Below, piece by piece: positions 10,437 to 62,000 of a DNA stretch of 64,000 nucleotides (position 1 is the stretch's first letter; each line of letters opens with the position of its first letter). The DNA is from Tribonema minus (Eukaryota; Sar; Xanthophyceae; Tribonematales; Tribonemataceae): assembly GCA_017506865.1 (NCBI GenBank), contig JAFCMP010000357.1, positions 873,001-937,000 of the forward strand, written 5' to 3'. The position numbers and the translations under genes were made by a program. A model generated the notes under the pieces. It was not told the DNA's origin. It saw only the letters and a program-made list of their open reading frames with translations, and did no database searches.

Positions 10437-13400
10437 TCACCCGCGCTGCTCCACAGATGGAGCCGCTGTGACGTCCACATTCTGCTCAGGCAGCAGCGCT
10501 GGCGCACCGGCGGCACTGGCTGCCGGCGGCGCATCGCGCTGCGCCGCCTCCCGCAGCGCCCTGTTGATGAGCTTGACCTCCTTGACGTTTAGCGGCTTCC
10601 ACTCGCCTTCACGCATGCCGTTGAGCTGTGGCAGCAAAGCAGGGCAAGGCAGAGGGGCGTGAGTCGAATTCATGAGTCGTCATCGTCGCGCAAAGCGCGC
10701 GGCAGCGGCGGCGGAGGCTCGTGAGACATCCACAGCAGCAAGCGCTGTGGCGGCACTGGTGCGCGTCAGAGGTCTTCCTGGGGTGCAGTTGTCGTCATTT
10801 CCGCGTCATTTCCTCCACCAGAAAATTGCTGCAATGCCGGCCACAGTGAGTCTCACAACATGAACCAGCAAGCATGCCATCCACCGAGTCAAGTCAAGAC
10901 TCACCGTGATCCCCATGAACGACGCGCGGTGGAGGAACTTCACCTTGTGCCCCACCTCCTCGCACATGCGGCGGATCTGGCGGTTGCGCCCCTCCTTCAA
11001 CGTGATCTCAAAGACGCGGCCATCGGTGCCCACACGTCGCACCTGCATCACGGCGTAGCGCAAATGTGCATTGCGAGAGGGACATTTCAAACTCATGAAT
11101 TAATAAGCGCACAACTGCGTCACAGCGCCGCGCGAATGTGCATTGCGAGAGGGGGCATGCATGAATTCATGTGCGCGCAACACACCGATGATGCGCTGCG
11201 TTGTAGTGGCATGGTGGCTCATTATGGCGCGGGCCTGTGCAAAACACATGAGCTGAGCGCTGCGTGCAGCAGTTACCGTAACTGCCAGGCAAAAGACCAC
11301 ATTGTTGTCGGACGTGTTTTGCCTCATGAGTGAGGCGTAGGTAGGTGGCATAGGTTCGGGGTATGATGGCAGCTTGCAAGCCGCGCCTTGCAAGGCAGCA
11401 TCTTGGCCTTTGCTCCTTGCTGCTGTGCTGCACAGGCGCAACAATTGTATACAGCATGTCTTGTACTTTGACGCTGTACCCTTCAATGGCATTTCATAGG
11501 CCCTGCCTTGGACTTGGCTGTCACCGCATCACCTCGTTGGTGTGCCGCATCGTCGCCCTTCCTGCAGCAGTGAATGAATTTAGCATAACCACCACTTCAA
11601 AGTGGAGGTTCAATGGCAACAGTCGCAGGGCCCTGCCTGGCAGGGCAGCGTCTTGGCCGTGACCGCCTTGCCGCTGTGCTGCACCGGCGCGGTGATGGTG
11701 ACGCCGCTGCGCATGCGCTCCAGCGCCGCGTCGGAGATGCGCCGCTCCACCGTTACAGTGTACACCTGTACACACGGGGAGTTCGGGCAAGTTCAGGGGA
11801 AGTTCGCCGTGTACACCTGTGTGCAGAATGCAGACCTGTTCTGGGAAAACACAGCGGTACGTGCTGGTGTCAATGCAGTGCACTGAGGCATCAGGCCGGG
11901 CGATGTGGCTGTGCGCAGCCTCGCAGAGCGCATTGCTCTGTCTTCGCATAGTACAGAGCGTGCCCGGCGTACTGCTGCTGTCAGTCTAGTGGCGTCACAT
12001 CTGAGTCAGGCGGATGAGTATAATGTAAACTGCACTTTTATGCAAATGCTGCGCAGACAACATTGGCGACATCATTTGCCCGCCAGGAAGGTGGAATAAG
12101 TTTTCACCATTCCAATGTGCAGGCTTGTGTCGTACGCATTATCAAAGGGCAGCAGTGCAGGCTTTGGGGGGGGGTATGCGCATATAGGTATGACTGCACG
12201 CGCCTGCTGCTTGGTTTCAGCACAACGCGCTACAAAAAGCCTCGTGCAGTGATGGCTGCGCTGAATGGGCGCTGCACGGCTCGTGTGGTCGGGAACACCA
12301 CACGTTGGAACAGAAGTGTTGTCACCAGCTGTCCCCTTCTTCTGATGCCCTTCTACTGGTGTTTCCTGGAGCGTTCCCCCGGTCAAGACAGCCTCGCGCA
12401 GCGAGCTCCTCCGCATGCGCATGCATACCTACATACCTTCTCCTGGTGCGCCTCCGCGCTGAGCGCCGCCCCCGGCAGCCGCCCGTCGCTTGTCAGCAGC
12501 AGCGCGCCGCTGCTGTCCTTGTCCAGGCGCCCCACGTTGAACAGCCGCTGCCCGCGGTACGCGCGCTCCGCGCCGCTCGCGTTGAGCACATTGGTCGCGT
12601 CGCCGCGGTCCGTCGTGCTCGTGACCCCCACCGGCTTCCAGTACTTGATGTAGACGAACTCCTGCGCCGCCGCCGTTGCTGTTGCGGTGACACCAGCAGC
12701 AGCAGCGGTGGTGCCTGCGCCGGGACGAGCGCGAAGTCAAAGAGCAGAGCACGCCACGTAATGAGGTGGGCGTGATGGTATGGCAACCGGCGGAGAATGC
12801 AGCGGTCGAGCGTCGGAAGGGCAGGGCGTTGTTGAGCGCTGACACGTGCCTGACTGAATGGTGTGCCAATTCAGCGGTACCGGCCAGCATGTCAAGCTTT
12901 GGCCAATGCCTCATTCGTGAGATCACCCGTACAGAAAATGCACGAGAGTGCCCCTCTGCCCATGCAGCACTGCGCTGCGCCATCAAATCAAACTGGTGCA
13001 TGCGCAATCACGGGCAGAACGGGGCGTGGACGGCGCAGCCGCATGACACACTCCATGTCTTGCCCACAATGACACTTGCAGGTGGTGCCAGTACAAGACA
13101 GAATCCATGCAGGTGGTGCCACGCATGACATAATCCATGCCTCGTCGTGGCGAAGAACCCTGCGTGCGCACTCACTTGCCACAGCCCCCCCCTTGTACGA
13201 CCCCCCAGCAGCAGCGCGGCCGGCAGCCCCCGCAGCAGCAGCGCGTGCCTCCGCCAGCAGCCCCGGTATGGCCTCCCAGCGCACGAGCTTTCCGTCCAGG
13301 GTCACCCGATCGCCGGGAAGGACGCGCGCGCCAGTTGTGGCCGTCCTCTTGTTGACACGCACCCTGCCCTCCTCCAAGAATTTATCGGCTTCGCGCCGCG

Positions 13401-14171: not shown

Positions 14172-14315
14172 TGCGTATCCACCAGCACAGGCTTTAGCCA
14201 GCTGCCGTCGATAACTGAGTTGAAGTTGAACAGAAGGAGTTGAAGTATGTAACGGCAGGCGTTGCGGGGGTAGAAAACAGAGAGGTGATCTGAAATCCCC
14301 GCCAAGCTGCTGCTA
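14172..14315. promoter_or_regulatory. 144-bp bidirectional promoter
   Basis: This is the very short gap between the ATGs of the pseudouridine synthase (minus) and the ankyrin-phosphatase gene (plus). It contains gagttgaagttgaac near 14217 and gagttgaagtatg near 14238, a word family repeated in other 5' gaps here. The distance leaves no room for two independent promoters. Confidence 0.6.
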
Positions 14316-25098: not shown

Positions 25099-25454
25099 GG
25101 CAGGTGTATAGCTTGCTCTCTCCTTATCAACCTACAGTACTTCACGTGTCCTTTCATTTGCCGCGAACTTGAACTAGACTCGAAGCGGCTCTCGCATGCA
25201 CATCGCCGCGCGGTGAGGGGGAAAAGCCCGTGCTCGAGCTCACTCTGCGTTCGGCTACAACATCCTGTTTACCGTTGACGTCGTTCGTCTTAGTTCTGCC
25301 TGGCAGTGTCGACTCGGCCCGCTGGTTGAAGGTACAGTAGATCAGACAGACCGAGAGCAGCTTGCAGAGTAAACGGGACACCGCGACCTGATTGGGAGCC
25401 TGTAGGTCGTTTACCTTCTCTGCAGCAGCCGTCCCCGGCATCGCCGCCCTCGCG
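25099..25454. promoter_or_regulatory. divergent promoter between kinase and response regulator
   Basis: This 356-bp gap separates the two ATGs. Near the kinase side it has cttgaactagactcgaagc (about 25167). Near the response-regulator side it has gtcgactcgg followed by ggttgaagg (about 25305-25330). These combine the ACTCGA and TTGAA words found in the other 5' gaps. Confidence 0.45.
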
Positions 25455-42400: not shown

Positions 42401-43585
42401 CTCAAACGCGCGGACCTTCCACGCCGCAAACGCCATCTCATGCGCACGGCACCGCGCGGCACTGCTAAGCCATGCACCGTCCATCAAAACACATGCAGAC
42501 AGACATGCAGCGCGCGCGCGCGAAACACGCACCTCGAGGCTCTCAAACGCGAGCTCCTTCCACACCACTAGCGCCATCTTGTACACACGACGCCGTGCAG
42601 CAGTGCTCAGTCACGCATATTCTTGCAAAGAGACGTACAGCGCGCTCGTGACCACGCACCTTGAGGCTCTCGAACGCGAGCTCCTTCCACACCACGAGCG
42701 CCATCTCGTACACCGTGTACACGCCGTCCTGCGGCGAGCGCCCCGTCTCGCAGTGGTTCGTCGCGACCCAGTGGCGGTCGAGGTACGAGAAGATGTCCGC
42801 GGCGTAGCCCATGCCGGTGGCGTAGTTGTCAAAGGCGCCGCGGTAGCGCGCGAGCAGGTCCAGCGAGCAGTGCGCCGTGCACGCCTCGTAGGCGAGCAGG
42901 CCCTGCAGGACGCCGTCCACGTAGTCCTCCAGCACCTCCTTGAGCTTGAAGTAGAGCTTGCCGGGCTGCGCGTCCATGGGCTTGGTGCACAGCTTTGGAG
43001 GGGGGCGGGGGGGGGGAGGGGGAGCGGTGGGTTGAGGTTAGGTTGCGCGGTGTGTTCTTGAAGGGGGGGGGGGGAGGCTATGCGCTTCAGCACAAGCGGA
43101 TGCCGGGGGTGGCGTGCTCTGGCAATAGCAGACAGTGTGAGAGAGAGAGAGGTGAGGGAAGGGGGTCTCACCTTGTACACGCCCGTGTAGAGAGTCATCC
43201 AGAGGTCATTGGGGAAGTTCTTGTTGGGGAAGTCCATGAGAATGGTCAGCAGGGACGACTCCAGCAGCCTGCGCAGCGATGGTCGCAGAAGCGGGCAGTT
43301 GCGGAGAAAACATCAGTTGAATTTTTATGGGGAAATTGCACAGGTGCTCAGGGCTATATATCAGGGGGTGCTATCTGTCAACTAGTGAGTGCGACGGGAG
43401 CGGCGGCATGGCGCGGGCGAAGCCTGCCTCACAAGCAGTTATGCGAGCAGGAAGAGACAGGTTTGGCATCAGCAAGACTTGAAGCTAGCAAATCACCCTT
43501 GCCCATTGTTCAGCCGACTGAGGTTCTGCGATGCTTACCCCCATGTTTCGTCGAAGTCTATGGGCTCTGGAGACAGCAGCGACAT
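30411..43585 (-). CDS. CUL1: CUL1-type cullin, scaffold of an SCF-like ubiquitin ligase
   Basis: Fifteen exons, 5' to 3' on the minus strand: 43585-43539, 43268-43172, 42992-42660, 41765-41427, 41120-40982, 40222-40136, 39389-39124, 38509-38261, 37615-37415, 36267-35923, 34871-34639, 33930-33730, 32746-32572, 31754-31551 and 30485-30411. They total 996 residues in frame; animal CUL1 has about 776. The start is MSLLSPEPIDFDETWG. Cullin repeats include LYFKLKEVLEDYVDGVL and YLDRHWV. The cullin homology core has FHKYYAKLLSKRIIQ, GFEFTSKLQRMFVDK, FVLTAGCWPLQS, RKLEWLYHLGHGEM and STFQMGVLYQFN. The neddylation segment is AAVCRIMKARRELAH (acceptor Lys about 941). The C-terminus is IDKDYLGRVEGKDMYTYCA. 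Extra length comes from Gly/Ala/Pro-rich insertions (exons 6, 7, 10 and 11). Cullins bind adaptor-substrate receptors at the N-terminus and RBX1 at the C-terminus. Confidence 0.95.
30868..31612 (-). repeat. ladder of exon 14 end copies in cullin intron 14
   Basis: The genuine exon 14 end and donor lie at 31541-31612 (ctcaccttcttgatgaacgg on plus). Copies follow into the intron at 31376-31441 (nearly perfect, same donor), 31226-31262, 31010-31090 (heavily decayed) and 30868-30905. The intron sequence between copies is also repeated: gaagtacttg...gtgaacttca...gcatgagaga occurs at 31138 and 31455. Confidence 0.85.
31996..32640 (-). repeat. five-copy ladder of exon 13 end and donor in cullin intron 13
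   Basis: The genuine exon 13 end starts at 32566 (ccgtaccttgatgcgactgc on plus). Similar blocks start at 32448, 32293, 32166 and 31996, spacing 118-171 bp. Each has cgcttgctggtg or cccttgctggtg and a readable donor (GTACGG, GTATGG or GTATAG). Spacer sequences are related as well. Confidence 0.9.
32709..33525 (-). repeat. six-copy ladder of exon 13 acceptor region in cullin intron 12
   Basis: The genuine exon 13 start is at 32731-32750 (gacagctccgtctcgctgcg on plus). Related blocks occur at 32921, 33046, 33216, 33346 and 33501. They alternate with a second shared block (gtttagagacgcat, then aataaaa, then ggacactgtcgg) and G tracts. Nearly the whole intron is built of these units. Confidence 0.9.
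33620..33770 (-). repeat. copy of exon 12 donor region in cullin intron 12
   Basis: The genuine exon 12 end with donor (gcaggctcacctgatggc on plus, 33720-33737) recurs at 33627-33644, about 93 bp further into the intron, with matching flanks (atgccctttgcgatatcc versus acgcccttggctatgtcg). Confidence 0.85.
33956..34135. repeat. two-copy tandem repeat in cullin intron 11
   Basis: A unit of about 95 bp with gttactgcatgctct, ttgaaggttgaagtagctca and a gaagtggtgagttgaa-like tail occurs at 33963 and again at 34054. It lies near the acceptor of exon 12. Confidence 0.8.
35501..35950 (-). repeat. four-copy ladder of exon 10 end in cullin intron 10
   Basis: The genuine exon 10 end and donor (ccctcaccatgctccgcaac on plus, 35916-35935) has related blocks near 35788, 35660 and 35540, spacing about 125 bp. 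Each has ctcacca, a cagcagcgtc-type block and gccccac/gccccgc. Confidence 0.85.
36550..37490 (-). repeat. ladder of exon 9 end copies in cullin intron 9
   Basis: The genuine exon 9 end lies at 37411-37490 (cctccagccactccatgtag on plus). A near-perfect copy is at 37285-37352, and weaker ones are at about 37181, 37017, 36690 and 36560. Each has cgtgtgcaggtcgcggctga or a decayed form. A (CATA)n run marks the genuine donor (37387-37414). Confidence 0.85.
36722..36742. repeat. interstitial TTAGGG-like repeat
   Basis: The sequence cccttagggttagggttagg lies inside cullin intron 9. Looser runs of the same type occur at 36487-36506 and 37640-37700. This is the sense of a TTAGGG telomere repeat, but far from any visible chromosome end. 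Confidence 0.8.
37708..38300 (-). repeat. double ladder in cullin intron 8 (both exon edges copied)
   Basis: From the donor side, the exon 8 end (cgatgtacgcaaagaggaag, genuine at 38269-38288) is copied at about 38122 and 37962. From the acceptor side, the exon 9 start (gatgatgcgcttgctcagca, genuine at 37569-37588) is copied at about 37712 and 37850. The two ladders meet in the middle of the intron. Confidence 0.88.
40729..40754. repeat. 26-base C run
   Basis: An uninterrupted run of about 26 C on plus lies in cullin intron 5. Most other homopolymer runs in this gene are C on the coding strand (G on plus); this one is the opposite. Confidence 0.9.
41834..41985 (-). repeat. decayed copy of exon 4 start in cullin intron 3
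   Basis: The genuine exon 4 start with acceptor is at 41700-41770. A copy at 41900-41980 keeps the cag acceptor and reads VKLRNHVMAVL against the genuine VKLRNHIMAVL, then LDDDSAV against LDDGGAV. It has lost frame and length. Confidence 0.88.
42376..42705 (-). repeat. three-copy ladder of exon 3 end in cullin intron 3
   Basis: The genuine exon 3 end (gaggctctcgaacgcgagct on plus, 42663-42682) is copied at 42539 and 42391, spacing 124-148 bp. The copies continue with ccttccac and gcgccatct. A fainter copy is near 42290. Confidence 0.88.
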
Positions 43586-44090: not shown

Positions 44091-47000
44091 ATGGCGCATG
44101 GAGACCGCCTCGCTGCAGCTCAAAAAGCCTACGAGGATGCTAGAGATCTCATCGTGCTGCTGCAGCAGCACCGTGACCGCCTGCAGGAGCTGCTGAAAGG
44201 TGAGCCTGCAAGGATCCATTGTCTGATTTAAAGATGTGTGTACGAATCACAGTCACGTTTATCATCATGTATGTGGATGTGAATTCACCAGATGACTTCG
44301 TGTATTGCGGTGTATGCAGCTGATGGCGCCAAGCTGGCCAAGGCGACAAAGGCACACAACCGCAAGCGGAAGGCGGTAAACGAACTTCGACGCGAGCCTG
44401 GTAAGCGCTGCCTCATCATTTCTCAGGCTAGCAGGCACAGTCTATATACGTTTTCGAGTAATGAGTGACAAGGCTTGTAAGCAGTATTTTTGACGGGGTG
44501 TTCTGAAGCAACCATAGATGAGCTATTCTGTGATTTGCTGATCATGACGGGTGCACTCGGGGCCGCATGGCAGGTCTGTTAGCGACTGCCTCTGGCTTGT
44601 GTGGTTATCAAACCTTTCTGCAGGCGGGCTCCGACGTGATGATCCATTTTCAGCAGCTACCGTCATCTCGACTAGTCAGACGTGGCACTACAGTACACCA
44701 CATCTGTGTCGATGTACACTGGTCGCACTCGACCGCAGACCAGTTGAGGCATGAGGGTCTTGTTTGTGCATCTCTGAAATGTATGAGGGCTTTCCCCTTG
44801 GCATCTTGCATATTTCACCCACAACCAATAAACAACAGCAGCACAAGCACGCCCATGCCATCCGCTCTGCCTTTGCCGGTTCGCTTGCAGCTGCGGCGGC
44901 AGAGGATGGCAGTGGTACAGCGCCGCCACAGGCAAGTCATTCGTCGCGCACGCTGCTGCACCACCACTCCTGCCGCGCATGCACGCGTAGGCATCAGCTG
45001 AATGAGCTGACCCACATCTGGTTTACAACAACAGCACGGGGGGGGGGGAAGCCTGGCATCATGACGCGCCTGCTTAGAGCCTGTCACTCACGGCTACCAA
45101 CTGCTATGTATGCGTACATACATACACTCAGCCTGCCCTGCACCGCTCTGTGGTGATAACAGCGCCTGTACTGGGAATGCAGCGTGCGCTCGGCGATGCA
45201 GCTTGAATGGCGTATGGTTATACAAGTGGTCGGTGTCTGCAAAGCCGCTTGTGATTGAGTTTTGTTGTGTACTGCGCTCAAAAGGCGTGCCAGTCAGCAG
45301 CAGCCGCGATGACGCCCCGCCTTCGCAGCAGTATGACAAGCGTGTCTTCAGCAGCTCTCGGCGCAGCTCTCCAAAGTATTGAATTACCTCTCTAATTCCA
45401 GCTGTTGCGGTCTTCATGTCAATGAACTGATGAGCTCATAATCACACTTCATCTTTCCTTGCAGGCCGGCGCGGAGACCCGTGCTTCCGCGCCGGCTCGG
45501 GACATCGCTGCTGAGCAGAGCGATGCCACACGCGCTGCGCGGGGCACAACGTGCGCTGCGACAGCGACGGAGTCTGGTCCTACGCACGCCGCCACAGCCG
45601 CAAGCGAAAACGGTGGCAGCGGCATCGGCGGCGATGCTGCCGGAGCAGGCGCGCTCGCCGGCAGCGGCGGCGGCGGCGGCGACAGCGGCGTTCTCAACGA
45701 GAAGCTGCCGTGGGCGCTGGAGTTCGAAGGCGTGCTGGTGGTGGCACGCGACGCGCGGACGGTGGGCGCGCTGGCGGAGGCGCAGCGGCGGTGCGCAGTA
45801 GCGCGCGCGCAGCAGCGGCGCGTGCCCGAGGTGAGAGTTGAAGTTGGGTGACGCTCCGCTGCGCTGCAGCACGGCTCAGTTGTGCGCCCCCTTGTCGCGC
45901 GCACGCGGCTGCGGCGCGTGCTTGAGGTGAGGGTCGAAGGGTTGGGTGACACTCCGCTGCACTGCGGCACGGCTCAGTTAAGCGGTTTCCGCGCTCGCGC
46001 GCGCGCGCGCAGCGGCGCGGCGTGTGGGAGGTGAGGGTTGAGGTTGGGTGAGCGTTGCGCTGCGCTGGGGGTAAGGGCGTGGCCGTGCGTGTTGCAGCTG
46101 CAATGCGGACGGACTGTTCTGCGCGACGGAGCACGGAAGGGGGAGCACGGGGCAGGGAAGCGTGGCACGTCGCCGAGCTTGGCGAGCAGAGAGCAGAACG
46201 AATGCGGCGGGGCGCGCGTGTGAGGAATTTAAGTGCAAGCAGGAGACGGCTGTGAAGCCCGCACTTTACGCTGTTGTGGCAAGCACGCGCGCACCAGCGG
46301 ATTGTACAAAGTGCGCGGCCCTCTCCCTATTGTTGCAATCGCATGCGCTGGAGACAGCCTGCAGAGTCCGGTTCTCGTGACACTGCGTGTCAAGTGCCAC
46401 TCAAGTCAGAGTGTGTCGAGTATACAGCTATGCAGACTGTGAAAACCTGCCCGAGGCGCATACCGAGTTCGAACCGCATTTTTTACTTCAACTTTGATAC
46501 CCCCCGCCCCCCTCCTTCCATCCCCCCCGTACAGGAGGTGCCACGCGGCTGGGCATGGCTGGAGCCGGCGGGCGTCCTGGCGCAGGGCTGGCTTGACATT
46601 GGCGGCGTTGGCGGCGGACCCGCCGACGCGCTGCCGCTGGCGCAGCTGGCGCCGCTGCTGGGGGGGGCTGCGGCTGCCGCAGCTGGCGCCGCCGCCGCCG
46701 CGGAGGGCGTGAGTGGCGCAGGTGAGGGTGCACGTCCGCAGCGCGCCCTGCGCCGAATGCCGTGCTTGTGAGCGCAGCTTTCACATTAGTTATGGTGAAT
46801 CCATTGAATCAGCTCACTCTTCTGCTATAGCACTTAGAAGTGATGGACTGGCTGATTGCAGGCGGACAGAATCCTTGCGCAGTTGCGTCGCGGCTCCAGC
46901 GGCGCCGGCAGCGGCAGCGACGCCGCACACCCCGTGCTCGCCTCATCGCTTGCGGCCCGTGCTACTGGGCCATTGTGTGTCCAATTTCGGCCGGCTTCAT

Positions 47001-50000: not shown

Positions 50001-53000
50001 CTTCCAACCCCCCCCCCCCCCCCCCCCCCTTCCCCTCCCCAGGTCGCCCGCATCCTCAGGACCCTGTCGCAGCCGCTCAAGCTCGCCGCCAACTGGCGCT
50101 CTGAGGCGCTCTGGCTCACATACCTGGGCTTCGCGCGGCGCGGCCTGACGGTGCAGCAGCAGTGCGAGATGACGTATCAGGTAGCGCGTACGGGGCCCGC
50201 GACGCAGTCGCTGCGCGCGGCGTGCGGCGGTGGCGCCGCGGAGCTGCCGGGCGCTGACGGCGGCAGCCAGCCCCTGCAGGTGCGGATGATGTGTCAACCA
50301 ACGCTCAGTAGGGGGAAGGGGTGCAGTGTGTATCAGAAGCTGCTGATTCGCTGGCATTTTGGGCGGAGCTGCCGGGCGCCGACGGCGGCGGCCAGCCGCT
50401 GCAGGTGCGTGTCTTAGGGTTAGGATTGGGTGAAAGATGTGCTCGTGCTCAGCAGGGGGAAGGGGGGCAGTTTGTTGTTGTACAAGCTGCTGATTTGCTG
50501 CCTTGATTTGTGCGGAGCATGGGAGGGGGGGGGGGGGCACTAGCGAGTGGCGGCGGCAGCACTGCACCGCCGCGGGAGCGCATGGTGGAGCTGAGGAGCG
50601 CAGCGTCGGCGGGAGACAGCAAACTGATCACGCTGAATTGCGCAGTTTCGTCGGACGTGCAAGATGAGTGCCAGCGATCGTGTGACTGCCGCAGGCGAGG
50701 TGCGAGGAATGAATGGATTCATAAATGAATGACAGGCGCCTCAGCAGGCAAACCCCCCGGCTCTCACCAGCGCGTTGCGCTCATGCGCCCCCCCCCATGC
50801 ACCGTCGGACAAACCGCCGCGGCTGTGAATGAATGAATCCATGAATGAATGACGGGCGTCACGCACGCTTTCGGCTCTCACCCGCGCACTGCTGCGGTTG
50901 TGCACGGCCCCCATGCACCATAGAAATGTCACGGCTGCGAATGCGTGAGACACGTCAAGCAAGCACATCCGGCTCTCACCGCGCGCTGCGCTCGTGCGTG
51001 CGCCGTCGCAGCAGCGCATTGTGGCCGTAATCGTCAAGCGCGTAGACAAGCCCCCATGCACCTCCGGAACTCGTTGCGACGATGAATGCATGCGTTGTGC
51101 AATGAATAACAGGCGTTAAGCAAACATCCGTCTCTCACCCGCGCACTGCTGCCCTCGTTCGTGCGCCGTCGTAACAGGGCGTCGTGGCCGTGAACGCCGA
51201 GCGCGTGGGCAGGTTGCGCCAGCAGCTGAGCGCTGACGCGCTGCCGCCCGCGGCGCGCGCGCCCGTCGTGGAGGAGGCGGTGCAGCTGACGCTCCACAGC
51301 GCGCAGGCCTTGGTACGTACTTTGATGTGTGAATATCTGCAATGCCTCTGGGCAGTACTGTAATCTTGTGTTGTGGGTTAGGGTTAGCCCTAACCCTAAC
51401 CCTAACCCTAACCCAAAGCTGAGAACGGTCAGAAGCGGTTGAGAATTTCTCGTGCCATGCTTCGCTGCCGCCATCGTGCTCCGCAGTGGCGCTGTTCAGC
51501 CGCGTGTTACTGGTGGCACTTCGATCACCAGCTGGCAATGAGGAGGCTTGGCTAGCGGCGATAACCTTCTTTGAAACCACTCTTGCAGTGTCTTGCGACG
51601 CAATTTGCGTCCTTGTCCTGTTGCCTTGACAGCACTGAGGCCAAGGCCGCAAGCTTTGGGGCCACAAAGTTGGCCGTGCGTCTCTTGTCGCCATTGCGGC
51701 GCGCATGCCTTGTGTCCAGCGTCAGCACTAAGGCCACGTCCCTGTGCGCGGCGCCCACGCGCGCAGCGCAGTCGAGCACTGTTGCCTCGCCTTTTCTACA
51801 TACCTACCTTCATGTAAACGAATCAAGAGATTGTACCTGCTTTAATACCTGCCCGCGCACCAACCTCCTCTGCCCACGGTCCGCACGCACTCCCCCCCCC
51901 GCCCACTGCTGCACCGCGCTGCGCCGATTCCGCAGGCCGAGGCCGGCCACCTGAGCGATGCCCTCGCAGGACTGCTGGGGGCCCTCGGCCGCGCCGACCT
52001 CGCGCCGCCCAACCCCTTCCGCGCCGCCGCTGCTGCTGGGCGCGCCGCCGCCGCCGCGCTGCCGCTGACGCCGCCCGTCCGCGCGCTGCTGTGGCTGGCG
52101 GCGGCGCACCTGCTGGCGTTCGGCGCGTTTCCGGACGCGGCGGCGGCGCTGGCGCGCGACGCGGCGCTGCTGCCGTGCGGCGGCGGCGGCGCGGCAGCGG
52201 CGGCGCCGCCGCCGTCCGCGCACCTGCTGATGTGGTCGCCGGAGTCGCTGAGGTGAGCGAGCGCCGCCGCGGCGCTAGCTAGGGCTGGGGTTTGGGGTTG
52301 GGGTGTGAGCAGTACAGGGAGGGCGATGTGCGGCGGCGCGCATATGGCGCTGCGCTGCGGAGCACTGATGACAGTGAAGGGGCGCGCTGCCATGTGTGGT
52401 GCACGACGAGGGCGGCTGCGTCAGACTAAATGCTCTCGTGCGCAGCACCCATATGCGCCGCGCTCGCTCCAGCGTGGGCAGGGGTCTTTCACGGGTTAGG
52501 TTTGGGCTAGCCCTCACCCTAACCCGGTAACCCGTTGGTGTGTGATGCTATGGGCAGCGTGCCTGTGCCGTCGCTGTTGCTGCCACCCATGCGAGATCTT
52601 CGCCGTCAGCGGACACGCTCGACATTAGCACGGGAGGCGCGGCGTAGACGTACCATCGTGGCGCCCCTACACTAGAAGTGACAAGCACGCGCCTCAGGCG
52701 CTTCCTGCTGCGCTGCGCCTTGTCCTGCATTAAACATTATCAGAGCCATCAGCTGCCAGTCGCACCTGCAGCCCCCGCACTTTTGCCTCATGCGCCACCA
52801 CTCCCGCTGTCAGGGAGTGACCAATTATTTGCATCTGAGCCTGAGAAGCCACTTGTTTGTCATTCCTGCCGCCTGCGCGCGCATCGCAGCGGCGGCGCGG
52901 CGGCGGCGCGGCTGCGCGGCGACAGCGTGCTGCGGCGGCACCTCTGCGCTGTGCTGGCGGCGGCGGACTCGGACGTACGCGCGACGGCGATGCAGGTGAG

Positions 53001-56000
53001 GGCGCGCTGCTGCTGCCGCATCTGCTGCTGCCGCTGCGGCGGCGGTGGCGCGAGTGGTGCCGCTGCTGCCGCCGCGGCGGGGCTTGCGTGCGTGTCCATC
53101 AATGTGCAGCTTTTGTAGCTGCTGTGCCAGATGGTGACCAAGGAGTAGGCAGATGCTGCCGCATTTGCTGCTGCCGCTGCGGCGGCGGTGGCGATAATGG
53201 TGCCACTGCTGCCGCCGCGGCAGGGCTTGTGTGCTTGTTGATCAATGTGCAGCTTCATAGCTGCTGTGCGAGATGGTGACCAAGGAGTACGAAGCTGCTG
53301 CCGCCGCTGCTGCACTTATGCTAGGCACGGCTATCTTCTTCTTCCACGACCCTGAGTCACTCTTCAATGTATTGCGTCAGCTTCCCGCCGCCTGCACGAG
53401 ACCCCACCGCCCCCGCGCAACTGACAACCCCTAACCCATCCAGTCATGGCAAGGCGCCCTTCAATTGTAGGTCACACTTGAATTTACTGCGTCAACTTCC
53501 CGCTTACCCGCGCGCGACCCGCACCACCCCCGCGCAACTGTACAGACAACCCCTAACCCTAACCCCCCTAACAACATAGCGCGCGTCCGCAGGACCCCGC
53601 TATGGCGGAGGCGGCCCTGCCGCTCGCCCTCCTCGCCAACGCCATCGCCGCCGAGTCAGTGCTCGGCGGCAGCAGCGCTGCTGAGCGCTGCCTCGCGCTA
53701 GCCGGCGTCGTCGCGACGTCCGCCGCCGCTGCTGCCGCGCAGCCTCCGAAGCCGCTGCGGCGGCGCGGCTTCGTGTTTGAGGCCGATGACGCGCCGCCGC
53801 CGCTGCCGGACTTTGGCGACTGCGCGCCGCCGCTGGTGCTGCACGCGCTGCGCTGCTGCCCGGGGCTGCCGCAAGCATGTAAGAAATGAGGAGAACTTGC
53901 GGACGCAAAGGACAGCGCGTGTCACTGTAGTGCTCTGTCCAGGGTCAGCACGCCGAGTGAAGTTGAAGATCGTTGTTTGCCCGGGGGGGGGGGGGGGGGG
54001 GGGTACGTGTGGGCAACAGCGCCGCGTAATGGTGGCGGGCTGTTGGACGCCTGCGACTGGAAGCGGTACTTCAGTAGATGCAGTTGCACGCTGATGGCAC
54101 TTTTTTTTTGCACAGCCTCGCGCCCTTGCCATGGCGCGCAGAGACTCGCACCTCGCGCACTCCACAACAGGTCCATCGTCCCATGCATCGGCGCGCGTCG
54201 ACGCTCACAGCACCGCATTGCGTTCGGCCTCGCAGCCGCCATTGAAACAAACAACGACACTGAACCCCCCCCCTAGCCAACCATGTTGCCAACACTAACA
54301 GCACCGCAACGCGTGCGGCCTCAGAGTCGTCATTGAAACAAACATGGACACTGACCCGTGTTGACCCCGTGCGCCGCTTGCAGGCAACAACGCCATGTAA
54401 CAGCACCGCATTGCGTGCAGCCTCGCAGCCGCCATTTCAGCACACGTAGACCCTGACCCCCCCCCCCCCCCCGCTACCCCCCCATGTCGCCGACACTAAT
54501 AGCACTGCATTCAAACAAACACACACACTGACCCCCCCCCGGCCACCCCATGCACCCCCCCCCCAGGCAACGGCGCCGCCGCCATGGCTGAGGGCCTCGC
54601 TGCCGCGCTGCAAGAGAGCGCGTCGCCGGAGCTGCTGCTGTGCCTGCTGGCGCTGGACGCGCGCGAGCTGAGCGCTGCCGCGGTATCGGCGCGCAACGCC
54701 GCCGTCGCCGCGCACTGGGCGCTGCGCGGGGACGTGGAGGACTGGCACGGCGGCGGCGGCGGCGGCGTCGCGCGCCTGGGCGAGGCGATGGACGTCTTCA
54801 TGGCCGCCATGCGCACGTGAGTATGTATGTATGTATGTGTTGTACTAAGGCCCCCTCGCTGGCTGACGCGTGGGTTGTAGAGTCCAGGGTGAGGGTTAGG
54901 GTTAGGATTAGGCGTCGCGCGGCTGGGCGAGGCGACAGACGTCTTCATGGCTGCCATGCGCACGTGAGTATGTACGTATGTGCTAGTACGGCCCTTTCGC
55001 TGGCTGACACGTGGGTTTAGGGTTAGGGTTAGGCGTCGCGTGCCTCGGCGAGGCGATGGACGTCTTTATGGCCGCCATGCGCGCGTGGGTGTGTATATTA
55101 TGAAGTGCGGCCCCCTCAATTGCTGCTGGGGCTGACAAGTAATATCGCCACGTTCAACATACGATGCCATGTCAGCGCTGGCTGACATGTATGTATGTGT
55201 TAGTACGGCCCCCTCGCTGGCTGACTCATGCGTTTAGGGTTGAGGTTCGGGTGAGGCGCCTCGCCCTTTGGTCTGAGTCTGGGTCTGAGTGCGCACCCCC
55301 CCCCCTCTCGCACCCGTGCGCCTTGCCTCGTGCTCTTTCTGCGATGCCTGCCACTCCTATCTGCTGCATGCGCGTATCTGGACGTGATTAACCGCCCACG
55401 AAGCCGTCGTCGTGTGGCACAGCGCCGCGCCGGCTCATGGTCCTGCGAAGTGCCAAACCTTAACACTAGCCCTGCCTTGAGGCGGCGTCACCGCGGCTCT
55501 TGTCGCATAGCATCCGCCTGTGTATGTTGTGTCAGGCGCTTGTACACGCATACCTCAATGGAAGACGCCCCTAGAGCCCCCCCCCCCTTGCACCCCTCCC
55601 ATTAGCGCAATGTGGCAGCGATCAACGACAGATCTGAGCTCCCCCAGCCTTTATTTACGTCCCGAAGTGCGCACTTTAAAGAAAGTACACGCTCCCCCCC
55701 ACCCTGCGGCATTCCGCGTGCAGGCAGGCGCAGACGCCGCGCTAGCCCCTCAACGCCACCCCCCTGGCGGCCACCGTCGCGTGGGCCTACCCCCCTTTGG
55801 CCCCTCGCCTCACAAACCCCCGCATCTCCTCTTTGACGTCGCGAAGCGCGTACTTTATAGTACATTGAAGTGCTTGCCCCCCCCCCTCCCCTCGGCACGC
55901 TGCGCACAGGTGGGCGCAGTCGCCGCGGGAGCCCCTCAACGCCGCCCCGCTGGCAGCGATCGTCGCGTCCGCGGGCGCCATCGGCGGCCCCCCCGTGGCG

Positions 56001-59000
56001 CAGCAGCTGCTGGCCAAGGCGCTGCGCGCCGCGGCGTTCCGCCACGCGCCGCGCGGCAAGCGCCGCGCGCTGTGGCGCCTGCACCTCGAGGCCACGTGCG
56101 GCGAAGGTGAGGCGGCGCGTCACGGCGCGTCACAGTTGAAATCATAGTATGTAAAATTGAAGTTGTGGTAGTCTGGCCCTGTGGCGCCTGCACCTCGAGG
56201 CCACGTGCGGCGTAGGTGAGGCGGCGCCGCGGCACGTCACAGTTCAAGCATGTGTGGTTCAGATTAGAGGATTGAAATGCTGTTGAGCAATGATGCGCAT
56301 AGTGTAGCCTTTGAGTCTGGTATCTGACATGAACGCAACGTCCCTCACCTTACAATTGCAGTCTGGGGCGTGCAGCCCGTCGATTTGCAGCGCACGGAGA
56401 TGTGAAGGGTGTAGTTACAAGTGGAGTTTCGGTGGGCCGCCCCCGATGCGGCGTCGCGTGGAGATCTGACGCGACGTCCCGTTCTGTGCGGCAGTGGTAC
56501 TGTGCAGCGGCGCAGTGGGTGCGCGCTGCGTGCTCAGCATGGCATCGTGCGGCGTGCATTCCGCTGCTGCGCGCGCGCCCGAGGCGCGCGCGTTGACGCT
56601 CCGCCGCTGCCGCGTGCGTCACAGACGAACGGTACACTCAGTATTGAAGGCCTATTGTCTGAGGGGTGTATCGGTCCGACATTTATATACATCGAATCGT
56701 TGCCATGCGCAAGAGAAGCCTGCAGCTGAGCGAGGCAGTCGTAGCACGCGCGAGCGGCGGCAACAATTCCCGGCGCTGCGCCGTCGCCGGATTCTGGCGC
56801 GCGAACGGGCCCCCTGAAACGTCGCGACCCGCACCCGCTGCCAACGCCAGGCAATGGACTCTTGCTTCGCTGGTGCTGCGCAGCCCGCATTGCTTCGTTC
56901 GCGGCGATACTGGGCCCATGAGCACTTGCTCTGCCGCCTGTGCAACCTCGTGCACAGCGACACTCCGCCCCTTCAACCGCTCGCCTCCCGGCCGCCCGAA
57001 TTCGCCGCTGATCGCTGCTGCTCTGCGCCGTCCGCATCAACGCTCAGGCGAGAAGCTCGCCGCAGCGCGCAGCGTATCGGCGGCAGGCGCCGACCCCGCG
57101 GCGGCGGCGCGCGCGGTGCTGCTGGAGGCGCTGCGCGAGGAGGCGCACGCCGCCAGCAGCAGGGCGGCAGCAGCGCAGCCCGCTGCTGCTGCCGCCGCGC
57201 CGGCCGCGTGCGCGAGCCTCGGCGACGCGCTGGTGCGCATGCTGGGCGGCAGGGCCGGCGGGGCGGACAGGGTGACGGGTGAGTTAGAGCGCCGTGTGCG
57301 CTCGGTGATGCGTCTGCGGCGGCATGAGGTTTAGACGTCGAAGTGGAGGGGCCCGGATAACGGGAGCGGCGGCGGGTTCTGAGTGTTTCTGGCTGCTTGT
57401 TTGGATTTTGAACTTCGCAGTGACTGCCCTCGCCATGGTTGCCTACATAGCTGTCGGCAGCATGCATCCGACGCTTCTTGACTCTGCCTGGAGGTACCGC
57501 CACGACACTGCCACCATACGGACTGCAGCCGTTAACACACGTTTTTTGTCACCGCGCCTCTCTCATGATTGCATTATGGGCGCGACCGCCGCCGCGGACC
57601 CGGCGCTGATGCTCACGCATGATGGAATGCTGCTGTCCCTGTCTGCCCTCAACAGTTACGACAGTTGAGCGACCGCTTTTCCTCATGTGTGTGCGCACGC
57701 CGTTCCCCCGCTGCACGCCAGAACTGCTGATGGACTCGTTCCTGAGCGCGATGGTGTGGCGCTACGCACAGCACAGGGAGCGCGTCGGCGTCGCGCCGGC
57801 GGACTGGGAAGGTGAGCCCCATTACTCAACGCTGCATCAGCGTCATCGTCGTCATCACAGCAGTTTGAAGCAGTGAAACGTCGCAGAATGTAAGGTGCGC
57901 CCGACCAGTGAGCGAGACAGGGTTCTCACACCCAGAGTGCATCATGAAAACCACGCTGCGCCCGCAGACTGGGAAGGTGAGCCACCTTGCTCAATGCTGC
58001 ATCAGCATCATCGTCGTCATCAACAGCAGTTTAGAGCAGTAAATCGTTGTAGACTGTATTGATGAGTCCAACCATTCATGGATGCAGGGTATCAGCAGCA
58101 CCCAGAGTGATCATCACAAGCAGTTCATAGTCTAGCACTCGACCGTTGTGGACAGCCAAGGTGCGCCAAAGCATCAATACAGGGCAGCAGCACCCGCTGT
58201 TATAAGAGCACACGGAGGCTGACCCGTCAGGATGTGCTCCACTGTGATATACTCGTGCGTGTACGCGCACACTTTGCAGCATCAAGATTTGATGTTCGGT
58301 TTCTCAAGCATGGTAGGAGAAGTGTGGATCAGGGGGTCGCTGCCCTCGGCGATTGCACAATTGCGGTGCGTTCGTTCGCACGCTGCCCTCGCCTTTGCGC
58401 TCGTAACGCCGACAACCAGCCGCCGTCGCCAGCCACCACGTGACACCGCACCGCCCCAGCTTCAACTTCATTGCCACCGCCAACTTCAACGTCGCCGCCG
58501 CCGCCGCAGTCATGCACGAGCTCTTCGGCACCAAGCAGGAGGTCCTCGTGGCCCCCGCCTCCACGCGCGCGAGGGCGAAGGCGAAAAAACCTTCCGATGA
58601 GTTACCGCCGCTCAGCGGAGCGCGCCGCGTGCAGTGGACGGCGGTCGTGTGCGCGCTCGGCGGCAGCGGCGGCGGCGGCGGCGGCGGCGGCAGCAGCGCA
58701 CTGGCGGGCGACACGACGGAGGCGCGCGCGCGGCTGCAGGCGTGCGCGCGGTTGCTCGGCAGCGTGGTGGACCTGGGCGTCAACAAGGCGCTGCGGGGTG
58801 AGCTGCCTAGATCGAGCCTGCTATGAGCAGCCGCACCCCTGTCATCTCAGACACTCAGTACGAATGAGCAGCAAACGACGCGTATTTGCCTCAGAACGGC
58901 AATGACGACGAGCAGCGCCCCGTGACAGCTGACATTGAGTGTCTGGTAGGCGGAACTAGTTGAGGCGCGGAGCGAGTCAACAAGGCGCTGTGGGGTGAGC

Positions 59001-62000
59001 TGCCTGGATTGAGCCTGCTTTGAGCAGCCGCACCCCTGTCAGCTTGGCGGTGCCGTAAATGCCCGAGCAAACGCCCCCCTGGACCCGCGGATCCGGACCT
59101 GTGCTCATTGAGCCTCTTGTGAGCAGCCGCACGCCTGTCATCTTGGTGGTAGGTGCTCGAAACAGGAATGAGGAGAAATCGTTGGCAGGGAATGATGAGC
59201 ATCCGGTAGGTGAGGCTGGGTCGGGTGTGCAGCGAGGCCCCCTGTCGCGGGGCACACGCAGTGAAGCGCACAACCGCACTGCAAGTCGGGACCGTGCGTG
59301 GCTGCGGCCGTGCTGCCGGTTGCACGTCAGCTGCTGGATGCTTTCGGCAGCGGCAAAGCCTGAGTCTACTCGAGGCCAGGGCGTGGCGGGCCGGCAGGCA
59401 CGGTCAGGGCAAGCGGCAGCAGCGCTCGGAGGCTGCACGGCCTCAGTGCTCAGCGGCGCGCGCAGGCTTGGCGCGCGCGGATGCAGCGTCACACATGCCG
59501 TCGCTGGACAGCGCAGCGCATGGCAAGTTGAAGTCGACCGCTGCCACATGCTCAGCAAACGGACATGTTCTCTCCCCATCCACAAATGGTTGGGAAGCAT
59601 GAGCTCTTGCACACCATTGAGCACGGCTCTGACCGCCGTCACACCCTCATGTGTTTTTGCTGCTCACGCGGCAGGCACCGGCAGCAGCGGCGGCGGCGCC
59701 AGCGCTCCTTCCGGCAAGAAGAATGGTCCCGCAGCGAAAGCTGCTGGCAACGGTGGCGCTGGAAACGGGGTGAGAGTTTGCAGTCGCGCAGGTGTTGCCG
59801 ACCCTGCTCTGGAGCGCGGCACTGGCCACGGGCCACTGCAACTGGAAGTGCGTGGGATGAGGCAGCAGACTCGCTTGGTTGGCATCACGCAGGCGTTGCG
59901 TGTTGCCGAGCGCTGCCCTGTGTGTCGGCAAGAGTCTTGTTGTCTGTAAGGTCACCATGCAGGGTTACTAGTTCCTATTGTTAAGCGCTATCGACCTCAC
60001 TTTGTCCTGTCAGTGGCCCTTGGCTGGGGCCGGCGCTGCCTCACGTTGTGCCCAACCTACCGAAGCTCGAGTATCTGTACCTAGACAACCAGCCAGGACT
60101 CACTAGAGGTGAATTCCGCCGTACCTGCAGAATATCACTGTGCGTGCATGGAAAACTTTTGTGACACCTGCAAGTGGTCGTGTTGTCATCGTGTCATTGT
60201 TTTGTACTGCCCCCCCCCCCCCCCCCCCCCCTCCCCCCACCATGCAGAATCCTGCAGCTGCCGTGCGTCTCGCTTCCTTAATACAGCTCCCAATCCGTGC
60301 CGCCACCCTGAAAGCTGAAGGTGAGCAAGGGGAAACTCAATTCAATTTGCTTCTAAGCTCACGCTGGGTCAGTGAATGCACCTTCCTGGTCTTTGCCCCA
60401 TGCATTGGGCCCTCATTCTTTCCTCTGCAGTGTCACTAGTATTCGCTGGGCAAGTTCACATGTTGTGATGTTATGATGTCCACATCTAAGTGCCAATTCA
60501 CAAACGCTTGCGCACTTCAGTCCGCACACGCTTGCTGCATTGTTGAGGGTTGCGGTTTAGGGCTAGGGTTAGGAATTGGTTAGGGTTAGGATCAGGATTA
60601 GGGTTAAAGTTAGGTTGACCCTAAGGCGCCAGCACTCTGAAGGTAGAGGCGGCAACAAGGGCAGACGTGCCTGCTGATCACCGACGCGTACGCGCCTGCC
60701 ACATGAGCTTTGCACGCTTGACCGACGTTTGTCGAGCACAAGCTGCTTTCATTGACGGCGAGATGCGCACACACGAGAGCGAGAGCAGACACAGCTCTGA
60801 GCACTGCCACGGCCAGGCGCACACATGACGCCCGCTCTGAGAGCAACCACAGCTCTGAGTCCTTCCACGCTGGACCTTTATATGAAACAATACGCAAAGT
60901 ATCAAACAGTGCCACGAGGGATTTTGGCAGGCGAATGCGCTTTCAGAACGTGGCTCGCAAGCTGTGAGGAGCATGCAACATGCGCAAATGAAACAAAACT
61001 GCAACATCTTACCACAACATGGAGTTGAGGTCGAAACTGAAGTGCACTCAATGCGGTGATGTTCATTGCTGCTGAAATGTAGAAGATGCGAAATATTTGC
61101 AGCCCCGCTCAGGACCAGCAGCCATTCTGCAGGGCGCACAGCTCACGACACCTTCTGACGCCCTTCAGTACTTCATCAGCCCCCCTCCCTCATTACTCAG
61201 TGGGCACTTGCGGCATCCCCATGCACATTCTCCAATCACGCAGCACCCAACTCAGCGCTCAACTGCCATGTGCTGCTGCCGCCGCCACCTACTGCCAGCC
61301 GCATTTGCAGCGCCCGCGCCCTACATTGCCATCGCGCGCCTGCTGGCGTCCATAGAGGACGCGGGCGGCAGCCCCTCGGACGCCGCCACAGCGCTCTGCG
61401 CCGCCGCCGCGCGCCGCCCTCGCTGCGCGCGTCTCTGGGAGCACCTGGTCCTGCTGCAGGCGCGCTGCGCCGCCGGCGGCAGCAGCAGCGCCGCCGCCGC
61501 TGCAGGCAGCGGCCAGGGCGGCGGCGGCGGCGGCGGCGAGAGCGCCACGGCAGTGCGTGTCAAAGGCAAGGGTGCGACCCGCGGCGGTGGCGGCAGCAGC
61601 GCCGCCGCTGCTGCTGCAGGCAGCGGCGGCCAGGGCGGCGGCAGCGGCGGCGAGAGCGCCATGGCAGCTCGTACCAAAGGCAAGGGCGCGGCCCGCGGCG
61701 GCGGCAGCGGCGGCGGCAGCGGCGGCGACGGCGGCGCGGCAGCGGCTGCGGAGGTCGCGGCGGCGGCGTGCGCGCGCGGCGCCGCGCTGCGGCTGCGGTG
61801 CGGCGGCGACGAGGCGGTGCTGGCGCTACCGGCGGCGGCACTGGCTGCGGCGCGGCGCGCGCTGCTGCGCGGCACGGCGACAGCTACTGTGCGGCTGGGC
61901 GGCGTGCTGGCGGGCTGCGGGAGCGTGCCGACTTCGGTGCTGGTGTGCGTGGAGCGGGCCACGAAGATGGACCTGTCGGGGAATGCGTTGACTGCGCTGC

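What the first reader, a model, noticed from the sequence alone, without database searches (positions are those of the whole stretch)
10905..59150. Introns built from tandem copies of their own exon edges and splice sites
In at least four unrelated genes (PSUS, ankyrin-phosphatase, cullin, ZFC3H1-like) the intron next to an exon carries one to five decayed copies of the exon's last or first 20-80 bases with the splice site, spaced about 70-250 bp. Copies always extend into the intron, from the donor side, the acceptor side or both. Preservation ranges from 47 of 48 bases to barely detectable, so the process looks continuous. Seen directly: the copies. Known: tandem genomic duplication across an AGGT-like site is a proposed route of intron gain. 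Inference: here repeated boundary duplication is the main way introns lengthen, and the active splice site may move between copies, which would change exon length over time.
Basis: partly seen in the sequence, partly recalled or inferred. Interest (0 to 1): 0.9.

Follow-up and report, generated by a model that had tools for sequence, protein, structure and literature searches.

The report
Alga introns grown from exon-edge copies
In the yellow-green alga Tribonema minus, short head-to-tail duplications keep copying the edges of exons, splice sites included, into the neighbouring introns, much as was reported in 2026 for the tiny dot chromosomes of birds, so this may be a more general way for introns to grow.

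Summary
The window belongs to Tribonema minus (Xanthophyceae). In its cullin gene (14 exons that join in frame), 11 of 26 intron-facing exon edges have a copy in their own intron that scores above 100 shuffles and above every other cullin intron. The pattern recurs elsewhere in the genome: 60 of 256 predicted exon edges, against 1 of 197 tested on another locus's flank, and 9 of 20 homology-defined TCP1 exons.

Best reading: frequent tandem duplication of roughly 70-230 bp units. A unit spanning one splice boundary survives, because the exon-proximal site still splices. The extra copy becomes intron and decays. Copies lack strong coding constraint, and cullin aligns gap-free to Chrysoparadoxa at the seven conserved copy-bearing junctions.

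In predicted introns up to 1200 bp, arrays within 10 bp of an edge match uniform duplication (12 of 31, 12.6 expected); within 30 bp they exceed it 1.5-fold. A targeted mechanism is neither shown nor excluded.

Closest known case: 'exon stuttering' on bird dot chromosomes (PMC12954441, 2026). This is the same kind of thing in a distant eukaryote, without an association with local GC.

The parts
30411..43585 (-). Cullin gene of Tribonema minus, 14 exons; host of most of the arrays in the window
   Evidence: Pfam Cullin and Cullin_Nedd8; NCBI T. minus cullin P0001; 14 exons join to one in-frame protein
42313..42659 (-). Donor-side copies of exon 3 (edge 42660): 42533-42586, 42394-42439, 42313-42345
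   Evidence: 50/54, 38/46, 28/33 identical; above all shuffles
41914..41968 (-). Acceptor-side copy of exon 4 (edge 41765)
   Evidence: 48/55
37956..38171 (-). Donor-side copies of exon 7 (edge 38261): 38116-38171, 37956-37999
   Evidence: 52/56, 42/44; three-frame view
37709..37898 (-). Acceptor-side copies of exon 8 (edge 37615): 37709-37760, 37844-37898
   Evidence: 49/52, 52/55; TRF period 145
37022..37346 (-). Donor-side copies of exon 8 (edge 37415): 37287-37346, 37022-37066
   Evidence: 57/60, 39/45
35533..35827 (-). Donor-side copies of exon 9 (edge 35923), three copies
   Evidence: 32/36, 31/38; third copy; TRF period 131
33632..33670 (-). Donor-side copy of exon 11 (edge 33730)
   Evidence: offset 98 self match
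32904..33513 (-). Acceptor-side array of exon 12 (edge 32746), five copies
   Evidence: 29/33, 29/30, 26/30; TRF 32825-33397
32002..32507 (-). Donor-side array of exon 12 (edge 32572), four copies each followed by GTACGG, GTATGG or GTATAG
   Evidence: 46/54, 47/53, 46/55, 43/48
30879..31439 (-). Donor-side array of exon 13 (edge 31551), best copy 31382-31439
   Evidence: 56/58; four copies
11394..11751 (+). Predicted exon 11644-11751 with acceptor-side copy 11394-11439
   Evidence: 39/46; exon predicted only
45590..46051 (-). Predicted exon 45590-45858 with acceptor-side copies 45897-45956 and 46001-46051
   Evidence: 50/58, 43/51; TRF period 98
50043..50404 (+). Predicted exon 50043-50279 with donor-side copy 50363-50404
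   Evidence: 39/42
52890..53313 (+). Predicted exon 52890-53103 with donor-side copy 53187-53246; array of period 143
   Evidence: 51/60; TRF
54567..55082 (+). Predicted exon 54567-54816 with donor-side copies 54911-54963 and 55032-55082
   Evidence: 49/53, 48/51; family D16
55727..56215 (+). Predicted exon 55910-56106 with a copy on the acceptor side (55727-55782) and on the donor side (56176-56215)
   Evidence: 48/56, 38/40
58779..59150 (+). Array spanning the end of predicted exon 58420-58797 and repeated twice beyond it
   Evidence: 69 nt at 93%, offset 197; 44 nt at 86%, offset 99; intron part 92%, exon part 75%; this edge is not among the 19

Best explanation
Tribonema minus gene regions suffer frequent short tandem duplications (detected offsets: median 131 bp, 5-95% 70-230 bp, with 40-450 searched). 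Shown: the copies are local, often head to tail over the whole unit, and mostly begin inside the exon and run through the splice site into the intron, from the donor or the acceptor side. Shown for cullin: joining the exons at the exon-proximal sites gives an intact protein with the same junctions as in Chrysoparadoxa. Inferred: a duplication that spans exactly one splice boundary is nearly harmless, because the splice site next to the intact exon still works, so the extra exon edge and splice site become intron and decay without selection. Repeated events build arrays and lengthen the intron. Duplications inside exons are mostly removed by selection, which makes the copies look as if they always ran into the intron. 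The molecular step (replication slippage, template switching or unequal exchange) is inferred, not shown.
For: Edges match their own flank in 60 of 256 tests, against 1 of 197 when the flank comes from another locus and 4 of 93 for exon interiors. All 34 TCP1 matches have their centre in the half of the exon hit that faces the flank, and 32 of 34 reach within 15 nt of that end. TRF sees head-to-tail arrays; several homologies found on intron sequence alone span a full unit, e.g. 146 nt at offset 145 and 142 at offset 125. Changes private to one copy fall on codon positions 37/32/51 of 664/668/665 curated sites, so no strong coding constraint. At seven conserved copy-bearing cullin junctions the Chrysoparadoxa protein aligns without a gap within 8 residues. 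Longer introns carry more arrays, though this is not corrected for target size. With intron length and unit size taken into account, arrays within 10 bp of an edge number 12 of 31 against 12.6 expected from uniform duplication (introns up to 1200 bp).
Against: An excess remains by other criteria: in introns up to 1200 bp 21 of 31 arrays within 30 bp against 14.3 (P=0.012) and 25 against 15.9 within 50 bp; in introns up to 3000 bp 21 of 53 within 10 bp against 15.4 (P=0.065) and 30 against 17.6 within 30 bp; over all exon-near DNA 34 of 65 within 30 bp against 17.1. This may be a real edge preference or imprecise predicted edges. Third codon positions differ more: exon against copy 40 and 100 third-position changes against 10 and 28 at second positions (cullin, TCP1), and copy against copy 47 against 19 and 128 against 76; part of this is exon change and base composition, but some past constraint is not excluded. 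When copies are chosen by their exon part, the intron part is more diverged than simple decay predicts (mean 0.96 against 0.68, 21 copies). Chosen by the intron part, 10 of 29 pairs show no exon homology at all, and the 16 of 29 with exon identity of at least 0.7 average 0.837 exon against 0.784 intron. Arrays are rarer more than 1 kb from predicted exons (1.4 against 5.3 per 10 kb), which uniform duplication does not explain by itself.
Confidence: 0.75

Rival explanations
1. Exon edges are true hot spots: something tied to transcription, splicing or chromatin at exon borders starts the duplications there.
For: Exon-masked test over all exon-near DNA: 34 of 65 arrays within 30 bp of an edge, 17.1 expected, P=7e-6; in introns up to 3000 bp 30 of 53 against 17.6. 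Arrays denser in predicted introns than more than 1 kb from exons.
Against: The strictest test in introns up to 1200 bp shows none (12 of 31 against 12.6). Sequence far from exons may be younger or mobile, which would lower its count without any hot spot; this was not settled.
Confidence: 0.2
2. The copies are used: cassette exons or alternative splice sites that change the protein.
For: In cullin many copies keep a donor GT or acceptor AG; 83 of 106 copies have no frame-shifting indel and only 5 of those 83 have a stop. Third-position excess in copies.
Against: Donor-side copies start mid-exon, so the duplicated piece brings no acceptor of its own; the cullin protein without any copy aligns gap-free to Chrysoparadoxa at the conserved junctions; in the cullin introns viewed with donor copies (7, 8, 9, 11, 12, 13) a stop lies in frame between the exon and the first copy; the NCBI cullin protein contains no repeated edge.
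Confidence: 0.06
3. The repeats are dispersed introner-like elements inserted near splice sites.
For: One dispersed repeat of about 210 bp does lie in cullin intron 8.
Against: Edges do not match flanks at other loci (1 of 197) or other cullin introns. In a genome search with 8.2 kb of the cullin gene the scored list held only the 210-bp repeat besides the window itself (40 of 478 candidates were scored, so weaker relatives could be missed).
Confidence: 0.02
4. Assembly artefact: false local duplication of sequence.
For: None found; read data were not available.
Against: Copies differ from the exon by a few to about 30% with changes of their own, form graded series, and occur in many genes and contigs.
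Confidence: 0.02

Closest known systems
Sequence stuttering (exon stuttering) on avian dot chromosomes, PMC12954441, Genome Biol Evol 2026 (passages, and first parts of sections 7, 8 and 9, seen)
   Same: Part of an exon next to its border, with the donor or acceptor site, is copied many times into the adjoining intron as imperfect local tandems; the exon stays intact. Birds: more than 90% of sources within 1 base of the border, exon part 20-187 bp, median 36.
   Different: Another supergroup (stramenopile). Seen on many contigs, not shown to be tied to a chromosome class. No association with local GC (P=0.15; 4 of 14 edges at GC 0.45-0.52, 15 of 65 at 0.64-0.75), whereas the bird authors stress GC-rich genes. 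Length polymorphism, a main feature in birds, could not be tested at exon edges here.
[quoted passage not shown] potato RdRp case, PMC4974935, abstract and introduction read)
   Same: Tandem duplication across an intron-exon boundary that supplies ready splice signals.
   Different: In potato one duplication made a new intron; here existing introns grow and no new intron was shown.
Direct repeats near intron splice sites (PMC11782384, abstract and outline only)
   Same: Repeats near intron borders.
   Different: Those are 4-30 bp repeats read as insertion scars, not arrays of exon edges.
Introners (PMC9860276, search listing only)
   Same: Repeated sequence in introns.
   Different: Introners insert copies into many genes; these copies are local.

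Membership tests
Exon stuttering (birds) | Copied segment touches the exon border and includes the splice site | tested here: met
   76 of 123 copies within 1 nt and 101 of 123 within 10 nt of the edge; cullin 15 of 19 within 1 nt and 17 of 19 within 3 nt; sites printed
Exon stuttering (birds) | Copies local (proximal intron), not in distal introns | tested here: met
   60 of 256 own flank, 1 of 197 other locus; cullin own intron beats all other cullin introns at 11 of 26 edges
Exon stuttering (birds) | Imperfect tandem structure, units of tens to hundreds of bases, also purely intronic arrays | tested here: met
Exon stuttering (birds) | Exon itself left intact | tested here: met
   cullin CDS in frame, gap-free to Chrysoparadoxa at seven conserved copy-bearing junctions
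Exon stuttering (birds) | Strong intron-length polymorphism within the species | not testable with these tools
   No strain data. Two stretches of one homologous contig pair were compared; the duplication differences seen are not at exon edges
Exon stuttering (birds) | Link to GC-rich genes or regions | tested here: not met
   No association with local GC, P=0.15. The bird authors report this as an association, not as one of the three main features they list
Intron gain by tandem duplication (AGGT model) | New intron absent from relatives, bounded by duplicated exon sequence | tested here: inconclusive
   Intron positions of relatives not available; cullin copies lie inside introns and do not bound a new one
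Introner | Same element in introns of many genes | tested here: not met
   with the limit that 40 of 478 candidates were scored (one 210-bp dispersed repeat inside cullin intron 8 is a separate matter)
Tandem exon duplication / cassette exons | Whole exon with both splice sites duplicated, coding constraint on copies | tested here: not met
   copies are one-sided exon edges; changes private to a copy spread over all codon positions with a mild third-position excess

The most novel reading that the evidence does not exclude
Exon borders themselves are mutational hot spots for tandem duplication in this alga, through a process tied to transcription or splicing. Bird dot chromosomes and Tribonema would then show one general, recurrent engine of intron growth that acts at splice sites and not uniformly on DNA.
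Probability: 0.2. Interest if true: 0.88.

Novelty: new member of a known kind. Interest (0 to 1): 0.6.

Why it matters
How introns get longer is mostly told through mobile elements (general knowledge). Here a visible series of duplicated, decaying exon edges shows introns growing from their own borders, in ordinary genes such as cullin and TCP1 chaperonins. The bird report called the phenomenon novel and saw it in no other vertebrate except GC-rich gerbil genes. Finding it in a stramenopile, without an association with local GC, would make it general and testable. It also poses a splicing question: how the machinery keeps choosing the exon-proximal site when several near-perfect copies of the same site lie within a few hundred bases.

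Tried and rejected
First taken for a chlamydomonad green alga because of GC and TTAGGG-type repeats; two Haematococcus papers were searched for passages and led nowhere. Overturned by the protein search.

A first count of duplication coverage around predicted exons and a first placement null (24 of 65 against 2.5) overstate the edge effect, because they ignore that a unit overlapping an edge must appear to abut it. They were replaced.

The idea that copies are kept up by gene conversion from the exon came from the strong exon-intron contrast. It was not kept, because choosing pairs by intron similarity narrows the contrast, though that comparison uses only the 16 of 29 pairs with exon identity of at least 0.7 (over all 29: exon 0.713, intron 0.788). 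The intron-part figures printed are not used, since their aligner left most bases unaligned. The third-position excess in exon-versus-copy counts mixes exon change with copy change; the changes private to one copy show a smaller excess.

Comparing two stretches of a homologous contig pair for array polymorphism: in L041/L042 a tandem pair of offset 93 is present in one and not in the other (net 72 bp), and a roughly 20-bp repeat differs by 41 bp, but in sequence with little host-like coding signal and not at an exon edge; L043/L044 show no such difference.

Pfam on ten open frames of array-poor or other loci did not settle whether far sequence is mobile DNA.

Limits of the counts: rest mainly on ab initio exons (474 predicted; 142 pass, 159 including 14 curated cullin exons). 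Some predicted exons may be decayed copies. Low-complexity edges and matches were dropped. In the wrong-flank control 59 of 256 same-locus pairings were dropped. TCP1 exon ends are homology-hit ends, not proven splice sites; 20 of 56 hits were fetched, some loci overlap, and the match list stops at seven per flank (reached once, in L038).

Literature searches (open-access library only) listed no report of this in Tribonema or another stramenopile; the Ectocarpus transposon paper was searched for passages and the passages shown do not mention it.


Full report
WHAT WAS CHECKED. The window is part of a 158-Mb genome in 554 contigs. The contig holding it is 991,993 bases long. A protein search with the draft cullin found a protein that is 97% identical over its best local alignment (46% of the query), named as cullin of Tribonema minus and lying on a contig of exactly that length. 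Tribonema minus is a xanthophyte of the PX clade of stramenopiles.

THE OBSERVATION. Local direct repeats are frequent: 61 matches of at least 45 bits with offsets of 30-700 bp in the window, and 0 to 36 per 10 kb in twenty 10-kb stretches whose places were chosen beforehand. A three-frame view of the cullin gene shows what many of them are: the last 20-70 nt of an exon, with the donor, recurs downstream, or the first nucleotides of an exon, with the acceptor, recur upstream, one to five times. The cullin gene was rebuilt by homology: Pfam Cullin and Cullin_Nedd8, the NCBI protein and proteins of Chrysoparadoxa, Ascophyllum and others. Its 14 exons join into one open frame.

TEST IN CULLIN. 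For each of 26 intron-facing edges the terminal 50 nt was aligned to the adjoining intron, to all other cullin introns and to 100 dinucleotide shuffles. Eleven edges beat everything. They lie in 8 of the 10 introns of 600 bp or more and in none of the 3 short ones. One row (donor of exon 4) used a wrong edge; the corrected edge also shows no copy. At a lower threshold thirty copies were listed, 3 with a frame-shifting indel and 3 with a stop in the entry frame. 3,854 of 10,292 cullin intron bases lie in local duplications.

TEST OUTSIDE THE WINDOW. An exon model trained on the window and the 20 stretches gave 142 exons above threshold. Of 256 usable edges, window included, 60 match their own 1-kb flank at score 36 or more (34 of 128 donors, 26 of 128 acceptors); the rates are alike in the 20 stretches (27% of donors, 22% of acceptors) and in the window (26%, 18%). 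The controls are 1 of 197 edges against the flank of another locus (same-locus pairings dropped), 4 of 93 exon interiors, 93 of 1153 noncoding 50-mers near exons and 41 of 1329 far from exons (Fisher P=1.7e-15 against the wrong-flank control). A second, homology-defined set was the 20 best of 56 TCP1/Cpn60 exon hits: 9 of 20 have flank copies, 34 matches in all. All 34 have their centre in the half of the hit that faces the flank, and 32 of 34 reach within 15 nt of that end (my reading of its list, which stops at seven per flank). Copies also appear in protein-level hit lists as repeated hits sharing one profile end, e.g. three at C51 near profile position 51 and two kinesin pairs.

IS IT MORE THAN DUPLICATION ANYWHERE? 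Exon-anchored pairs diverge more slowly because mainly the copy decays, so exons were masked and arrays were detected on noncoding sequence alone: 76 arrays, unit median 131 bp. A uniform model that lets a unit overlap an edge predicts 14.8 of 65 exon-near arrays within 10 bp of an edge and 17.1 within 30 bp; observed are 24 (P=0.007) and 34 (P=7e-6); the 11 arrays more than 1 kb from an edge were left out. Restricted to predicted introns of up to 1200 bp, observed and expected are 12 and 12.6 of 31 within 10 bp, 21 and 14.3 within 30 bp (P=0.012), 25 and 15.9 within 50 bp; up to 3000 bp they are 21 and 15.4 of 53 within 10 bp (P=0.065) and 30 and 17.6 within 30 bp. After a crude correction for slower divergence, edges exceed near-exon noncoding DNA only slightly (18 of 256 against 46 of 1153, P=0.045) and far DNA clearly (22 of 1329, counts). 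So much of the pattern follows from frequent duplication plus survival of harmless ones; a modest preference for edges is not excluded. Arrays are also denser in predicted introns (53 in 100 kb) than more than 1 kb from any exon (11 in 79 kb, P=7e-6). I cannot say how much of that reflects younger or mobile DNA.

DO THE COPIES WORK AS EXONS? Changes private to one copy were counted by codon position: 37, 32 and 51 of 664, 668 and 665 sites in the curated genes, 74, 77 and 123 over all. C-to-T and G-to-A are the commonest changes (127 of 274). A conserved exon would be expected to show far fewer changes at the first two positions. Against this reading, exon-copy and copy-copy differences show a larger third-position excess, part of which must come from change in the exon. 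Of 106 copies, 23 have a frame-shifting indel, and 5 of the other 83 contain a stop. The NCBI protein contains no repeated edge. In cullin introns 7, 8, 9, 11, 12 and 13 a stop lies in frame between the exon and the first donor copy. At the seven conserved junctions that carry copies (3, 6, 7, 8, 11, 12, 13) Chrysoparadoxa aligns without a gap within 8 residues; Ascophyllum has gaps near 8 and 13 and the fungal cullin near 3, 8 and 13; junction 9 is in a variable linker. The splice sites have therefore not visibly moved since the split from Chrysoparadoxa. Donor copies mostly keep GT, sometimes GC, so they are near-perfect decoys.

HOW IT PROBABLY WORKS. In several arrays homology covers whole units (TRF periods 131, 143, 145 and others; 146 nt at offset 145 on intron bases alone), and spacing has a median of 153 bp. 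One case, cullin intron 8, has a possible short direct repeat (GCTGCAG and a near match) at unit ends; this was not tested further. This fits short tandem duplication by slippage, template switching or unequal exchange. The step is inferred. A duplication across one border leaves exon and proximal splice site intact, so it can drift, decay and be repeated. The exon-derived part looks much better kept than the intron-derived part when pairs are picked by exon similarity. Picked by intron similarity, 10 of 29 pairs show no exon homology and the 16 with exon identity of at least 0.7 are only slightly better kept in the exon part. I read the contrast as largely ascertainment, but it is not settled.

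COMPARISON WITH THE LITERATURE. A 2026 paper on birds (PMC12954441; passages, first parts of sections 7-9) describes the same thing as exon stuttering: 236 introns of 115 chicken genes, 190 of them on dot chromosomes, sources within one base of the border in more than 90% of cases, exon part 20-187 bp (median 36), and introns highly variable in length. In Tribonema 66 of 315 edges have copies; 76 of 123 copies lie within 1 nt of the edge (15 of 19 in cullin) and the exon part has a median of 57 bp. There is no association with local GC (P=0.15), unlike the GC-rich setting the bird authors stress. The potato RdRp case (PMC4974935; abstract and introduction) shows one such duplication creating an intron. 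Searches of the open-access library listed no report for Tribonema or other stramenopiles; subscription papers and preprints are not held.

LIMITS. No RNA-seq, no strain data, no DNA of close relatives, 64 kb of window plus some 290 kb of partly overlapping genome stretches, and ab initio exons for most counts.

VERDICT. A real and striking pattern, best explained by recurrent short tandem duplication with survival at splice borders. It is a new, phylogenetically distant member of a kind first described in birds.

Noticed in passing
window 36793-37006: Interspersed repeat of about 210 bp inside cullin intron 8: 41 further matches in the scored list at 80-89% identity, both orientations (40 of 478 candidates scored). 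No other part of the 8.2-kb query appeared in that list.
   Followed up: partly
window 36500-37900, 54893-55033, 51388-51414 and many loci: Interstitial TTAGGG/CCCTAA-like runs in introns, 1 to 27 per 10 kb in the twenty stretches; in one array (54.9-55.0 kb) such a run stands where the exon's GGC repeat stands in the true copy (family D16).
   Followed up: no
L041 and L042; L043 and L044: Contigs C90 and C179 carry homologous stretches (about 96% and 92% identical at the two places). L041 has a tandem pair of offset 93 that L042 lacks (net 72 bp); L042 has 41 bp more in a roughly 20-bp repeat. They could be haplotypes, a segmental duplication or viral/mobile sequence; little host-like coding signal.
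   Followed up: partly
window 35923-37415: The NCBI cullin model P0001 runs 9 nt past the donor of exon 8 and reads part of exon 9 in another frame; the frame used here matches Chrysoparadoxa.
   Followed up: yes
window, 42 runs: Long poly-C/poly-G tracts (10 or more) are about 2.8 times as dense in this GC-rich window (42 in 64 kb) as in the twenty stretches (47 in 200 kb), often as the pyrimidine tract before acceptors.
   Followed up: no
TCP1 loci L021-L040: Differences between contigs: exons with copies number 4 of 5 on C135, 1 of 2 on C5, 1 of 1 on C51 and on C544, but 1 of 6 on C235, 1 of 4 on C279 and 0 of 1 on C511.
   Followed up: no
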